Under the pieces are notes generated by a model. The model did not search any database, was not told the DNA's origin, and saw only the letters and a list, made by a program, of their open reading frames with translations. From an uncultured Erysipelotrichaceae bacterium (GTDB taxonomy: Bacteria; Bacillota_I; Bacilli_A; Erysipelotrichales; Erysipelotrichaceae), in contig CATJXY010000017.1 in the NCBI GenBank assembly GCA_949744505.1, positions 1 to 64,000 on the forward strand: a stretch of 64,000 nt of DNA, read 5' to 3'. A program made the position numbers and the translations under genes. Below are positions 2,641 through 9,720 of this stretch, piece by piece (positions within the stretch are counted from its first letter, which is position 1; every line of letters starts with the position of its first letter).

Positions 2641-3151
2641 TTAGTGCCATAGCAATTGTTTTCCCATCTGTAATTTCACCGATCAAAACTTTTTCAATCA
2701 GCTTATCAAATGACATGCAGGAAAGTTCCAAAAATTCATCCGGTTCCAAGCTTTGACCAACCAAGGTCAGATCATCCGCATAATACATGTAGATGCGCTC
2801 TTGTAGATAAGCTCCGGTCGGAACAAATTCACCGATGAATACGAGTTTCCCGGCAACATAACCGGTTTCTTCCATTAACTCTCTCTTTGCACAATCACGA
2901 GGATCTTCTCCTGGGGCTAATTTTCCGGCTGGGAATTCGACCATGCTTCTCTGCTGACCATAGCGATACTGTGTGACTAAATAAACATTATTGTTTTCAT
3001 CGAATGCGGCAACACAAGCCCCACCCGGATGTTCGATCAATTCTCTTGTAACAATATCTCCATTAACAAGTTGAACTGAGTCTTTTCGAACATTAAAAAG
3101 GTTCCCGTTAAGAATTGTTTTTTTAACAAGCGTTTTTTCTTTTAATTCCAT
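2606..3151 (-). CDS. NUDIX hydrolase, ADP-ribose pyrophosphatase type
   Basis: 181 aa, the usual length for the ADP-ribose/ADP-sugar pyrophosphatase branch of the NUDIX superfamily. The Nudix box is complete at residues 76-98 (G76, E82, R90-E91, E94-E95, G97), giving the divalent-metal-binding loop-helix-loop. The upstream ELIEHPGGACVAAF block and the downstream VPTGAYLQER region match NudF-like proteins that hydrolyse ADP-ribose to AMP and ribose-5-phosphate. The gene is monocistronic and converges on the oxidoreductase gene. The exact substrate cannot be fixed by sequence alone. Confidence 0.88.
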   Translation of the reverse strand: MELKEKTLVKKTILNGNLFNVRKDSVQLVNGDIVTRELIEHPGGACVAAFDENNNVYLVTQYRYGQQRSMVEFPAGKLAPGEDPRDCAKRELMEETGYVAGKLVFIGEFVPTGAYLQERIYMYYADDLTLVGQSLEPDEFLELSCMSFDKLIEKVLIGEITDGKTIAMALKIKALKERNLL

Positions 3152-3227
3152 ATTTTACTCCTTGGTAATATTGATAAATATATTATACCCCAATTCTGAT
3201 TATTTTCATACAATTTTCTATTTCCTC

Positions 3228-3256
3228 TTGAAATGGAGTACGCTCCATGTTTTAAT
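3228..3256 (+). promoter_or_regulatory. Putative promoter with MerR-type dyad in the spacer
   Basis: TTGAAA (3228-3233) and TTTAAT (3251-3256) are 17 bp apart, and the spacer carries ATGGAG-tacg-CTCCAT (3233-3248), a dyad placed as MerR-family regulators bind. It lies directly before the MerR-type gene, so autoregulation is likely. If TTTAAT is the true -10 the leader would be only a few bases, so the exact -10 is uncertain. Confidence 0.5.
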
Positions 3257-3271
3257 TAAAGGGGTGATAAC

Positions 3272-3652
3272 ATGAAGGTTTCAGAATGTTCAAAAAGAAG
3301 TAATACGCCAATTGATACAATTCGATATTATGAGAAAATAGATCTTTTGAATGTGGTAAAAGAAGAACACAGTCAGAAAGATTACAGTGAAAAGGACGTT
3401 GAACGGTTGTGTGAGATAGCAATCTTGAAAAAGACAAATCTTTCGTTGGAAGAAATAAAAGAGTATTTGAAAGCTAAAGATACGATTGAATCTATGATGT
3501 CGGGACAGTTGGATTTTGTGCGTATCAAAGAAAGCTTAGCCATTTTGAAAACCTTGAATGATAAGCTCGGTGAAGAAAAGAATGATTTATTGGCAGCACA
3601 AAATACGATTGAGGTAGCCATGAATTCATTGAAAGAAAATCTTCTCCGTTAA
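3272..3652 (+). CDS. MerR-family transcriptional regulator
   Basis: 126 aa. Residues 2-25 match the MerR winged-helix start (VSECSKRSNTPIDTIRYYEKIDLL), followed by a wing and a long helical dimerisation region at about 60-120. The protein lacks the paired cysteines of metal-sensing MerR proteins, so it probably belongs to the stress-sensing or small-ligand branch. The ATG at 3272 follows AAGGGGTGATAAC. A dyad in the promoter immediately upstream fits autoregulation. It is the only gene in its transcript before a terminator at about 3700, so its other targets are unknown. Confidence 0.85.
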   Translation: MKVSECSKRSNTPIDTIRYYEKIDLLNVVKEEHSQKDYSEKDVERLCEIAILKKTNLSLEEIKEYLKAKDTIESMMSGQLDFVRIKESLAILKTLNDKLGEEKNDLLAAQNTIEVAMNSLKENLLR

Positions 3653-3665
3653 TAAGGATTGAAAA

Positions 3666-3700
3666 AGAGTATTAACAAATGAAAGTTAATACTTTTTATT
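3666..3700 (+). terminator. Terminator after the MerR gene
   Basis: AGTATTAAC (3668-3676) and GTTAATACT (3685-3693) form a perfect 9-bp stem followed by TTTTTATTT. Confidence 0.8.
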
Positions 3701-3833
3701 TAGTGATAAAATGAATAGAAACCAAATGTTGGCAAGGATCGATTTCTTTTAATCTTTTAAACAAAGAAAGATTATGTTAAACTAAATACAGGTTTTATTC
3801 TGGTAATACTTAAATCAAGGAAAAGGTGAAAAG

Positions 3834-4463
3834 ATGAGACGAGGATGGTTTATAACTTTTGAAGGACCGGATGGAAGTGGAAAGACAACCGTTTCTACTT
3901 CTGTGGTAGAGAAGCTGAAAGAATTTGGTTATGAAGTAGTTTATACAAGAGAGCCGGGTGGAATTGATATTGCGGAACAAATCCGTCGTGTCATATTGGA
4001 TCCGAAAAATACGGCAATGGATGCAAAAACAGAAGCACTGTTGTATGCGGCAAGTCGTCGTCAACATCTTGTGGAAAAAGTTCTTCCTGCTTTAAATGAA
4101 GGGAAAATTGTAATCTGCGATCGTTTTGTAGACAGTTCTTTGGCCTATCAAGGGGTTGGAAGAGATTTGGGAATCGATGAAGTTTACTCAATTAATCGTT
4201 TTGCCATAGAGGATGTGATGCCGGATAAAACAATATATTTGAATTTGAGTGCTGCGGAAGGGCTCAGTCGTTTATCAAATAGAGAGTTCAAAGACAGATT
4301 GGATCAAGAGAAGATCGATTTTCATTTGAAAGTGGTGGATGGCTACAAACAGGTGGTTGAAAAATATAAAGACCGCATGGTAATCATCGATGCATCAAAT
4401 GAAGTAGAGAAAGTGATACAAGATGCTTTCGAAGCTGTTATGAATGTGGTAAGAGTCCGATGA
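3834..4463 (+). CDS. tmk: Thymidylate kinase
   Basis: 209 aa, the usual length. P-loop GPDGSGKTT at residues 11-19, TREPGG near 42-47, the DR-containing block CDRFVDSSLAYQG, and an arginine-bearing LID region (RLSNREFKDRLDQE) identify dTMP kinase, which phosphorylates dTMP to dTDP for DNA synthesis in the cytoplasm. Start ATG at 3834 follows AAAAGGTGAAAAG. It is the first gene of a tightly packed operon and its stop overlaps the holB start by 4 bp (ATGA). This tmk-holB-ricT-rsmI order matches the Bacillus tmk-region cluster, with the small genes in between missing. Confidence 0.95.
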   Translation: MRRGWFITFEGPDGSGKTTVSTSVVEKLKEFGYEVVYTREPGGIDIAEQIRRVILDPKNTAMDAKTEALLYAASRRQHLVEKVLPALNEGKIVICDRFVDSSLAYQGVGRDLGIDEVYSINRFAIEDVMPDKTIYLNLSAAEGLSRLSNREFKDRLDQEKIDFHLKVVDGYKQVVEKYKDRMVIIDASNEVEKVIQDAFEAVMNVVRVR

Positions 4464-7269: not shown

Positions 7270-7382
7270 GAAAAGTAAACACGATTAGATGATGGATTTA
7301 AAAAGAATCTTGTCGTTATAGTTGTGAGTATAAGAAAAGCACCTATGGTTTATGATAGATGCTTAACCTTAATAAATTTTAC

Positions 7383-7415
7383 TTTCCCTTAAATACACAG
7401 CTGTTTTAAGGGAAA
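7383..7415. repeat. TTTCCCTTAAA inverted repeat downstream of fic
   Basis: Perfect 11-bp arms (7383-7393 and 7405-7415) with an 11-bp centre. The arms are the same sequence found in the two palindromes on the other side of the fic gene. It lies 20 bp beyond the fic stop. Confidence 0.75.
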
Positions 7416-7434
7416 ATGATATGGATGTAAGGAA

Positions 7435-8481
7435 TCATTTCAATCGAACATAACGAATCAACTTTCCGACACCCTCACGTTTTAGTTCACCGGCAGTCAC
7501 CATTTTTCTGAGTGCCCCCTCAATCGAACTGACACTTAAAGAAGGACACAATTCGCGAATATCCTGTTTGGTAAATCGTCCGATTTTGGTTTGTGTTGCT
7601 TTTCGAACCATATCGATGGCTGGAAGTTTTTTCTCTATAATAGCAAATCTGTCCTCAAAGTCTTTATAGGCGGCAAGAATAATACCGAGAATATACTTGA
7701 TGAAGGGAACAACATCTTCTGTACCCTCATGCCATTTGTGCTGTGACTGATTTAGAGCAGTATAATATAAGTCTTTATCTTTTGCGATTTTTGCTTCCAA
7801 AGAAATATATTTTCCTACATAAAATCCGCTGCGGTATAGAAGGAGTGTAGTAAGCAATCTACTAATTCTCCCATTACCATCATTGAATGGATGGATGCAC
7901 AGAAAATCATGAATAAAGATTGGAATTGCAATTAATGGTTCTAGTTCAAAATTTCCGATCACTCTGTTGTACTCTTCGCAGATTCTATCTAAAGCTTCCG
8001 GTGTTTCAAATGGTGAAAGAGGAGTGAATAGAGTTTCTGTATGTCCATCAGAATAGGTTGCACTGATATAATTTTGAACATTTTTTGTTTGTCCTGCCAT
8101 TGGATTATTCATGTGACTATACATGATTTTGTGTAGTTGCAGAATATAATTGCGTGAAATCGAAATAGTATCAAAGTTTTCATGAATGATATTTAAAACA
8201 TCACGATAACCTGCGATTTCCTGTTCATTACGATTTTTTGGAGCGGTTTTTTCATTAACCAATTGTTTGATACGCGTATTAGTGGTAACAATTCCCTCAA
8301 TTGCATTTGATGCTTCGGTACTTTGAATTTTTGCGATTTCAACTAACCTCTCCAATTCACTGGGACGTTGCTTTAGGTATAATTCCTGTTTGCCTACCTC
8401 TTTATATATGGCAGCGATATATCCGAGGATATCGGTATCCCATTTCTGGTCCTTAAAAGAGGAGTAATTGAATATTCTCAT
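7435..8481 (-). CDS. Fic-domain AMP-transferase with winged-helix tail
   Basis: 348 aa. The Fic core carries HPFNDGNGR at residues 197-205, a full match to the HxFx(D/E)GN(G/K)R catalytic loop, so the protein should be able to transfer AMP (or another nucleotide group) to a protein hydroxyl. An N-terminal helix has S58-xxx-E62-G63, the (S/T)xxxE(G/N) inhibitory motif of class II Fic proteins, which blocks the ATP site until relieved. The last ~70 residues look like a winged-helix domain (KIGRFTKQDIRELCPSLSVSSIEGALRKMVTAGELKREG). The ATG at 8481 follows a weak AAGG. Palindromes with identical arms lie upstream (8498-8532, 8551-8583) and downstream (7383-7415), suggesting self-regulation through the wing domain; this is inference. 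Confidence 0.92.
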   Translation of the reverse strand: MRIFNYSSFKDQKWDTDILGYIAAIYKEVGKQELYLKQRPSELERLVEIAKIQSTEASNAIEGIVTTNTRIKQLVNEKTAPKNRNEQEIAGYRDVLNIIHENFDTISISRNYILQLHKIMYSHMNNPMAGQTKNVQNYISATYSDGHTETLFTPLSPFETPEALDRICEEYNRVIGNFELEPLIAIPIFIHDFLCIHPFNDGNGRISRLLTTLLLYRSGFYVGKYISLEAKIAKDKDLYYTALNQSQHKWHEGTEDVVPFIKYILGIILAAYKDFEDRFAIIEKKLPAIDMVRKATQTKIGRFTKQDIRELCPSLSVSSIEGALRKMVTAGELKREGVGKLIRYVRLK

Positions 8482-8497
8482 TTCCTTAATTTTTATC

Positions 8498-8532
8498 CTT
8501 TCCCTTAAATTATAACTTAATTTAAGGGAAAG
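8498..8532. promoter_or_regulatory. Palindrome upstream of fic, copy 1 (candidate operator)
   Basis: CTTTCCCTTAAAT (8498-8510) and its exact complement at 8520-8532. The left edge reaches the fic ribosome binding region, so a protein bound here or an RNA hairpin formed here could block expression. Confidence 0.6.
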
Positions 8533-8550
8533 CTCAATCGATATGCAGAT

Positions 8551-8583
8551 ATTCCCTTAAAATATTATTTAAAATAAGGGAAT
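8551..8583. promoter_or_regulatory. Palindrome upstream of fic, copy 2 (candidate operator)
   Basis: ATTCCCTTA (8551-8559) and TAAGGGAAT (8575-8583), sharing the TTCCCTTA core with copy 1. Only 18 bp separate the two palindromes. Confidence 0.55.
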
Positions 8584-9015: not shown

Positions 9016-9309
9016 ATGGCACAAGCAACATTTAGTGTTCGTATGGATGAAGATTTAAAACGTCAATTTGATATTCTCTGTGCAGATTTCGGGATGACTG
9101 CAACTACTGCATTTAATATCTTTGCAAGAACTGTTGTTAAGGAGAGAAAAATTCCTTTTGAGATTCAGGCATCTGAGGAAATAACAAGAGCTTCTGGAAA
9201 GAAAGCTTTTTATGAATTGCGAGCTGAAGCAAAAAGGAACGGAATCCAAGATTTAACTTTGGATGAAATCAATGAAGAAATACAGCAGGCAAGAAATGGA
9301 GATAAATAA
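9016..9309 (+). CDS. RelB/DinJ-family antitoxin
   Basis: 97 aa. The N-terminus (FSVRMDEDLKRQFDILCADFGMTATTAFNIFARTVV) is a ribbon-helix-helix of the RelB/DinJ type, which dimerises, binds the operon promoter and neutralises a partner toxin with its C-terminal tail. The start follows AAGGAGG with an 8-bp gap. The stop codon at 9307-9309 directly touches the ATG of the PIN-domain toxin. Most RelB/DinJ proteins pair with RelE/YafQ toxins; here the partner is a PIN nuclease. Autorepression is likely but no clear operator was found beyond the promoter. Confidence 0.88.
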   Translation: MAQATFSVRMDEDLKRQFDILCADFGMTATTAFNIFARTVVKERKIPFEIQASEEITRASGKKAFYELRAEAKRNGIQDLTLDEINEEIQQARNGDK

Positions 9310-9720
9310 ATGGTTTACTATGCAGTAATTGATACAAATGTTCTCGTTTCTGCATTACTATCAAGCCATGACGATACAGCGACTGTTTTAATTCTTAATA
9401 AATTATTTTCCGGTGAAGTGATTCCACTTTTTAATAAGGAAATTTTAGAGGAATACAATGATGTTTTACATCGACCGAAATTTCATTTTTCAGAAGATAG
9501 GATCTATCTACTTCTTGAAACTATCAAAAAGTATGGGGAATATGTTGTATCGTCACCTACCGGAGAAATACTTTCAGATATAAAAGATTTGCCTTTTTAT
9601 GAAATTGTTGTTGAAAAGGATAATGCATATCTGATTACTGGTAATATGAAACATTTCCCGGTAAAACCATTTATTGTTACACCGAAAGAATTTTTAGATA
9701 TATTAAAAAAGAATAAATAA
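9310..9720 (+). CDS. PIN-domain toxin (COG1569-type endoribonuclease)
   Basis: 136 aa. The first acidic residue sits in AVIDTNVLVSALLS (D8), the second in EEYNDVLHRPKF (E44-E45 region), and the KDLPFYEIVVEKDNAYLITGNMKHFP block carries the third metal-binding position, with Asn rather than Asp in TGN, as often seen in this subfamily. PIN toxins are Mg2+-dependent RNases. It starts immediately after the RelB-like antitoxin with no gap, so the pair forms a toxin-antitoxin operon closed by a terminator at 9727-9754. Confidence 0.88.
   Translation: MVYYAVIDTNVLVSALLSSHDDTATVLILNKLFSGEVIPLFNKEILEEYNDVLHRPKFHFSEDRIYLLLETIKKYGEYVVSSPTGEILSDIKDLPFYEIVVEKDNAYLITGNMKHFPVKPFIVTPKEFLDILKKNK

What the first reader, a model, noticed from the sequence alone, without database searches (positions are those of the whole stretch)
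7383..8583. Fic gene bracketed by three matching palindromes
Inverted repeats with a TTCCCTTA core lie 20 bp after the fic stop (7383-7415) and twice before its start (8498-8532, 8551-8583), one touching the ribosome binding site. The protein has a C-terminal winged-helix domain, so it may bind these sites and control its own gene, or the repeats may mark the ends of a small mobile unit.
Basis: partly seen in the sequence, partly recalled or inferred. Interest (0 to 1): 0.6.

Follow-up and report, generated by a model that had tools for sequence, protein, structure and literature searches.

The report
Self-repressing Fic gene with three operators
The three matching palindromes are, with good confidence, landing sites for the Fic protein's own DNA-binding tail, so this horizontally spread, possibly anti-phage enzyme probably switches off its own gene; related Fic genes each carry their own version of the same-shaped site.

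Summary
Three 31-nt palindromes, TTCCCTTA-N15-TAAGGGAA, flank the fic gene, and they are the only ones in the 1.85 Mb genome. About 90 relatives (at least 70% identity) from other bacteria keep the same site, mostly 18-19 nt before the start codon. Two thirds have a second site 52-53 bp further upstream, and about a quarter have a third ~20 nt after the stop.

The proximal site sits on a conserved promoter: the -10 box lies inside it and the -35 box just before it. The full upstream site in the family is a symmetric array of four half-sites at offsets -20, 0, +23 and +43. More distant Fic-winged-helix genes (34-65% identity), including plasmid and phage copies, often carry same-shaped sites with different letters. 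Those letters track the winged-helix domain better than the Fic domain. One genome with two Fic paralogues has a private site for each.

The best reading is direct self-repression by the Fic protein, as shown experimentally for Yersinia CccR. The repeats do not mark the ends of a mobile element, although the gene does move between bacteria. The downstream operator's role and the Fic target are unknown. All evidence here is computational.

The parts
7435..8481 (-). fic gene, 348 aa: class II Fic domain plus C-terminal winged helix
   Evidence: Pfam Fic 3e-17; AlphaFold pLDDT 92; structure matches to Fic proteins
8500..8530 (.). O1, proximal operator, 31 nt; arms perfect over 8498-8532; covers the promoter spacer, -10 and likely start site
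   Evidence: conserved in 90 of 92 relatives
8552..8582 (.). O2, distal operator, 52 bp upstream of O1
   Evidence: 60 of 92 relatives, offset 52-53 in 58 of them
7384..7414 (.). O3, downstream operator, 20 nt after the stop codon
   Evidence: 25 of 91 relatives
8532..8537 (-). -35 box TTGAGC
   Evidence: TTGAC conserved at this place in relatives
8509..8514 (-). -10 box TATAAT, inside O1, 17 nt from the -35
   Evidence: conserved in relatives
8481..8488 (-). accessory half-site R' (TAAGGAAA, 7 of 8), running into the start codon
   Evidence: sequence; family profile at +42/+43
7428..7434 (-). degenerate accessory half-site TTCCTTA before O3
   Evidence: sequence; family profile at -20 of O3
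7337..7364 (-). intrinsic terminator of fic, after O3
   Evidence: similar hairpin after O3 in several relatives
7444..7620 (-). winged helix, residues 288-346
   Evidence: model; operator covariation
7495..7533 (-). third (recognition) helix, residues 317-329
   Evidence: model
7867..7893 (-). Fic motif HPFNDGNGR, residues 197-205
   Evidence: translation; invariant or nearly so in 52 homologues
8293..8310 (-). inhibitory motif SNAIEG, residues 58-63
   Evidence: translation; S58, E62 invariant and G63 nearly so

Best explanation
The palindromes are operators read by the C-terminal winged helix of the Fic protein itself. A Fic dimer binding O1 covers the -10 box and start site and shuts off its own promoter. 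O2, about five helical turns upstream, and accessory half-sites 20 bp outside O1 would make binding cooperative. O3, between the stop codon and the terminator, would be an auxiliary site (looping to O1/O2, or a block to antisense transcription). The result is a low, self-limited level of an autoinhibited AMPylating enzyme, probably a toxin-like or anti-phage factor of the SoFic/CccR kind. Shown by sequence: the sites, their uniqueness, their conservation on the promoter and their covariation with the winged helix. Inferred: binding, repression, cooperativity, the O3 role and the enzyme's biological job.
For: Only three sites in the genome, all at fic. O1 in 90 of 92 relatives, O2 in 60, O3 in 25 of 91, at fixed distances. 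O1 overlies a conserved promoter with 17-nt spacing; 62 of 73 representatives have both boxes in place. Extra half-sites mirror each other about O1 and carry each subfamily's own letters. Operator letters follow the winged helix and not the Fic domain: partial Mantel r 0.37, p 0.0005, versus r 0.06. Paralogues in G064 have private sites. Same design on plasmids and phages. Experimental precedent: CccR (PMC9755527).
Against: No binding or expression data. Roughly 40% of distant representatives show no clear 31-nt palindrome. Shared ancestry is only partly removed in the covariation test, and some single Fic-domain columns also score. A few close relatives have weak or no site (L049, L005). O3 is absent in about three quarters of relatives, so it is not essential.
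Confidence: 0.87

Rival explanations
1. The repeats mark the ends of a small mobile unit carrying fic.
For: The gene moves: copies at 91-95% nucleotide identity sit in unrelated flanks and fic is absent beside rsmI in 27 relatives. Here the repeats do lie on both sides.
Against: Only 25 of 91 relatives have a downstream copy. Homology ends do not coincide with the repeats; no target-site duplication seen. O1 and O2 are fixed on the promoter, and the letters change with the winged helix. No recombinase in the unit.
Confidence: 0.04
2. The palindromes are bound by another regulator of the host, not by Fic.
For: No binding experiment was possible; promoters are often controlled by separate factors.
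Against: Sites occur only at fic in the genome and travel with fic across classes of bacteria, plasmids and phages. Letters covary with Fic's own winged helix. No shared neighbouring regulator gene.
Confidence: 0.06
3. The palindromes act as RNA hairpins, such as terminators or mRNA stability elements.
For: Perfect inverted arms could fold; O3 lies in the 3' untranslated region.
Against: O2 lies upstream of the promoter and would not be transcribed from it. No T-tract follows the repeats, and a separate terminator follows O3. Only 3 copies in the genome. No Rfam match. Fixed 15-nt spacer with a variable interior.
Confidence: 0.03

Closest known systems
CccR of Yersinia pseudotuberculosis (PDB 7XUX; PMC9755527)
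   Same: Class II Fic plus C-terminal HTH; represses its own gene by binding an inverted repeat near -35/-10. Sequence match E 7.7e-9 and fold match.
   Different: Its operator is AGATAATCAT-N26-ATGATAATCT, 46 nt; here a 31-nt core plus outer half-sites and a downstream operator. CccR is a secreted effector in a T6SS cluster; no such setting here.
SoFic / Sofic anti-phage proteins (PMC12249575; PADLOC SoFic)
   Same: Single class II Fic protein with a C-terminal domain; PADLOC SoFic model E 3e-39; fold matches 3eqx, 3zcn.
   Different: Below the NCBIfam SoFic cut-off (58 versus 550 bits). No downstream AS1-like antitoxin gene fits before the terminator. No operator was found described for Sofic.
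CbFic2 of Coxiella burnetii (PMC10628234; PDB 8CIL)
   Same: Class II Fic with C-terminal wHTH that binds DNA; DNA binding stimulates activity.
   Different: No specific DNA site known; random DNA was used. 17% identity in the fold match.
Fic protein of Bordetella bronchiseptica (PDB 8UQU)
   Same: Closest solved sequence, E 1.8e-72 over residues 27-346; N-terminal domain fold matches.
   Different: No paper holding the entry code was found in the library; its DNA site was not examined here.

Membership tests
Fic (Fido) AMP-transferases, class II | Fic motif HPFx[D/E]GN[G/K]R | tested here: met
   HPFNDGNGR at residues 197-205; motif present in 179 of 189 homologues
Fic (Fido) AMP-transferases, class II | Inhibitory [S/T]xxxE[G/N] motif N-terminal to the Fic core | tested here: met
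   SNAIEG at residues 58-63; motif in 186 of 189 homologues
CccR-type Fic autorepressors | Class II Fic domain plus C-terminal HTH | tested here: met
   Model shows a C-terminal winged helix; matches to 7xux
CccR-type Fic autorepressors | Inverted repeat over its own promoter | tested here: met
   O1 overlies -35/-10
CccR-type Fic autorepressors | Same operator geometry (10-nt arms, 26-nt spacer) | tested here: not met
   8-nt arms with 15-nt spacer; CccR values from PMC9755527
CccR-type Fic autorepressors | Binds the site and represses the gene | not testable with these tools
   Needs gel shift and reporter assays
CccR-type Fic autorepressors | Secreted through a T6SS cluster | tested here: not met
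   Immediate neighbours are rsmI and a RelB/PIN pair; only the near surroundings were examined
SoFic anti-phage system | Match to the PADLOC SoFic model | tested here: met
   E 3.1e-39, residues 18-294; PADLOC's own thresholds were not applied
SoFic anti-phage system | NCBIfam SoFic equivalog cut-off | tested here: not met
   58 bits against a cut-off of 550
SoFic anti-phage system | Downstream small antitoxin AS1 (47 aa) | tested here: not met
   Terminator lies about 70 nt after the stop, too short for such a gene; AS1 from PMC12249575
SoFic anti-phage system | Protection against phage | not testable with these tools
   Needs a phage challenge
Mobile element bounded by inverted repeats | Homology between copies ends at the repeats | tested here: not met
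   Ends vary, commonly inside or outside the repeats

The most novel reading that the evidence does not exclude
Fic-winged-helix proteins form a large family of private, mutually orthogonal autorepressors with one shared operator geometry (four half-sites at -20, 0, +23, +43) and a diversifying operator code, in which nucleotide or AMPylation state changes DNA binding, so that the enzyme's activation also derepresses its own gene: a one-protein defence switch.
Probability: 0.25. Interest if true: 0.75.

Novelty: new variant of a known kind. Interest (0 to 1): 0.52.

Why it matters
CccR was presented as set apart from other characterised Fic proteins, and for Sofic and CbFic2 no specific DNA site is known in the papers read. 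If this is right, operators on the gene's own promoter are a common property of Fic-winged-helix proteins and can be read from sequence alone. That gives predicted DNA targets for many Fic subfamilies and a natural set of matched protein-operator pairs for studying recognition. It also suggests how a potentially toxic AMPylating enzyme can spread between hosts as a single self-controlled gene, and gives a handle on what releases repression.

Tried and rejected
Mobile-unit reading: flank comparison of 72 loci; repeats do not mark homology ends. RNA element: no Rfam hit. Regulon: no further good sites in the genome. Paper searches for PDB 8UQU and for winged-helix Fic papers found nothing. Census of 117 flanking ORFs found no shared partner; the commonest families, Resolvase among them, were in only 4. 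Palindromes without an intact fic: two family genomes (L116, L122) and five viral contigs (L193, L196, L199, L200, L203). By eye L122 looks like a terminator hairpin; some viral ones may be chance or cut contigs; not resolved. Close relative L049 (82% identity, changed third helix, no TTCCCTTA site) hints at a specificity shift but its operator could not be defined.

Full report
Check of the observation. The three palindromes are real and exact: TTCCCTTA, 15 nt, TAAGGGAA, at 7384-7414, 8500-8530 and 8552-8582. They are the only such sites in the 1.85 Mb genome, with zero in the reversed-pattern control. Allowing three mismatches adds only 3-mismatch sites, and the total stays below the control.

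The gene. The ORF 7435-8481 (-) encodes a 348-aa Fic protein (Pfam 3e-17) with intact HPFNDGNGR and the class II inhibitory motif SNAIEG. AlphaFold on 52 homologues gives mean pLDDT 92, with a C-terminal winged helix (helices 288-297, 305-311, 317-329; strands 333-336, 343-346). Pfam gave no hit for that domain, so the model is the main evidence for it. Sequence and structure matches: B. bronchiseptica Fic 8uqu, SoFic 3eqx, CccR 7xux, CbFic2 8cil.

Conservation. 80 relatives at 77-87% identity were fetched from named genomes, with more from the genome search. Of 92 distinct loci at 70% identity or more, 90 have O1, mostly 18-19 nt before the ATG; 60 have O2, 58 of them at offset -52 or -53; and 25 of 91 have O3, mostly 19-21 nt after the stop (a site was counted at up to 4 mismatches in the 16 arm positions). 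The family logo shows TTGAC at -7 and TAtaAT at +16 relative to O1, a 17-nt promoter spacing. In the window this is TTGAGC-17-TATAAT. So O1 covers the promoter core. Arms are conserved and interiors vary: O1 0.93 versus 0.59, O2 0.84 versus 0.41, O3 0.93 versus 0.43. The sites were picked by a threshold on the arms, so this contrast is partly by construction. Across 273 family genomes, exact matches occur in 12, always with spacer 15, and in 10 of them at fic or a fic remnant.

Four half-sites. An offset profile finds two more half-sites around O1, a forward one at -20 and a reverse one at +43, exact mirror images about the O1 centre. In subfamilies with other operator letters the reverse site at +42 to +44 carries the subfamily's own letters in about 15 of the 20 or so loci of 50-70% identity, even where the ATG lies at +61 to +66. 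So it is not merely a ribosome site. O3 has the -20 half-site too (mean 6.4 of 8). The window copy keeps the +42 site (7 of 8) but not the -20 site of O1.

Covariation. Many distant homologues (34-65%) carry same-shaped palindromes with other letters: TTCTCCCA, TTCTCCTA, TTCTCACA, TCTCGTA, TCGTCCA, TTCATCCA, ACTACCTA, (A/T)CTGCATA and more. 33 of 59 representatives have a 31-nt palindrome versus 0.9 in shuffles; neighbouring odd spans are also high because longer palindromes nest. Among 43 representatives below 80% identity, operator distance follows winged-helix distance when Fic distance is controlled (r 0.37, p 0.0005) but hardly follows Fic distance when winged-helix distance is controlled (r 0.06). 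By region the mean signal is highest in the HTH helices and near zero in the Fic domain, although single Fic-domain columns also score. Shared ancestry is not fully removed by this test. In ten genomes, sites with 0-1 mismatch for two operator classes lie at the matching fic, apart from one (G127:C82) whose surroundings I did not check; G064 holds both classes, each only at its own gene. Plasmid and phage copies show a related design, for example Lactobacillus kefiranofaciens pWW1 and a Caudoviricetes phage with the gene between terminase and portal.

Mobility. Homology between copies, even at 91-95% nucleotide identity, commonly ends about 150-180 bp upstream and about 28 nt downstream, not at repeats. 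Flanking genes are mostly unrelated. In 27 relatives with rsmI, nearly all with yaaT nearby, fic is absent beside rsmI. The gene moves, but the repeats are not its ends.

Mechanism. Best reading: dimeric Fic binds O1 through its winged helices and occludes the promoter; O2 and the accessory half-sites add cooperativity. CccR gives the experimental precedent (PMC9755527): autorepression, footprint on a palindrome near -35/-10, dimer required. O3 sits before the terminator in the window and several relatives and is more frequent where the next ORF is convergent (16 of 25 versus 17 of 66; Fisher p 0.0013, not corrected for ancestry). That fits a block on antisense transcription; looping is another option; neither is shown. 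The enzyme's task is inferred: Sofic protects against phage (PMC12249575; PADLOC match) and CccR AMPylates FtsZ.

Novelty. A Fic-helix-turn-helix autorepressor is known. New here are the family-wide operator geometry, the diversified operator letters tracking the winged helix, the mirror-image accessory half-sites and the downstream operator. I found no paper describing these in the library searched, which lacks most subscription journals.

Noticed in passing
window 9016-9720: RelB/DinJ-family antitoxin gene followed directly by a PIN-domain gene, a likely toxin-antitoxin pair next to fic. A plasmid fic (L225) also has a RelB/DinJ antitoxin as neighbour.
   Followed up: no
L123 (G169), L124 (G171), L116 (G035): Operators that survive beside broken fic genes (G169, G171) or with no fic match in the genome (G035).
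   Followed up: partly
L049 upstream of fic: An 82%-identical relative with a changed third helix (SSIERSLRKLV) lacks the TTCCCTTA palindrome; possible natural specificity change.
   Followed up: partly
L230 (PV036453.1) 3001-4074: A Caudoviricetes phage genome carries a fic relative between terminase and portal genes, annotated as hypothetical protein, with its own operator upstream.
   Followed up: partly
L169, L172, L180, L205, L206, L208: Relatives in the same class read TGA inside fic, as expected of lineages that recode TGA; read with code 4 here.
   Followed up: no
L022, L021: MAG records named Alistipes and Spirochaetales hold copies at 83% identity; transfer or binning error, not resolved.
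   Followed up: no
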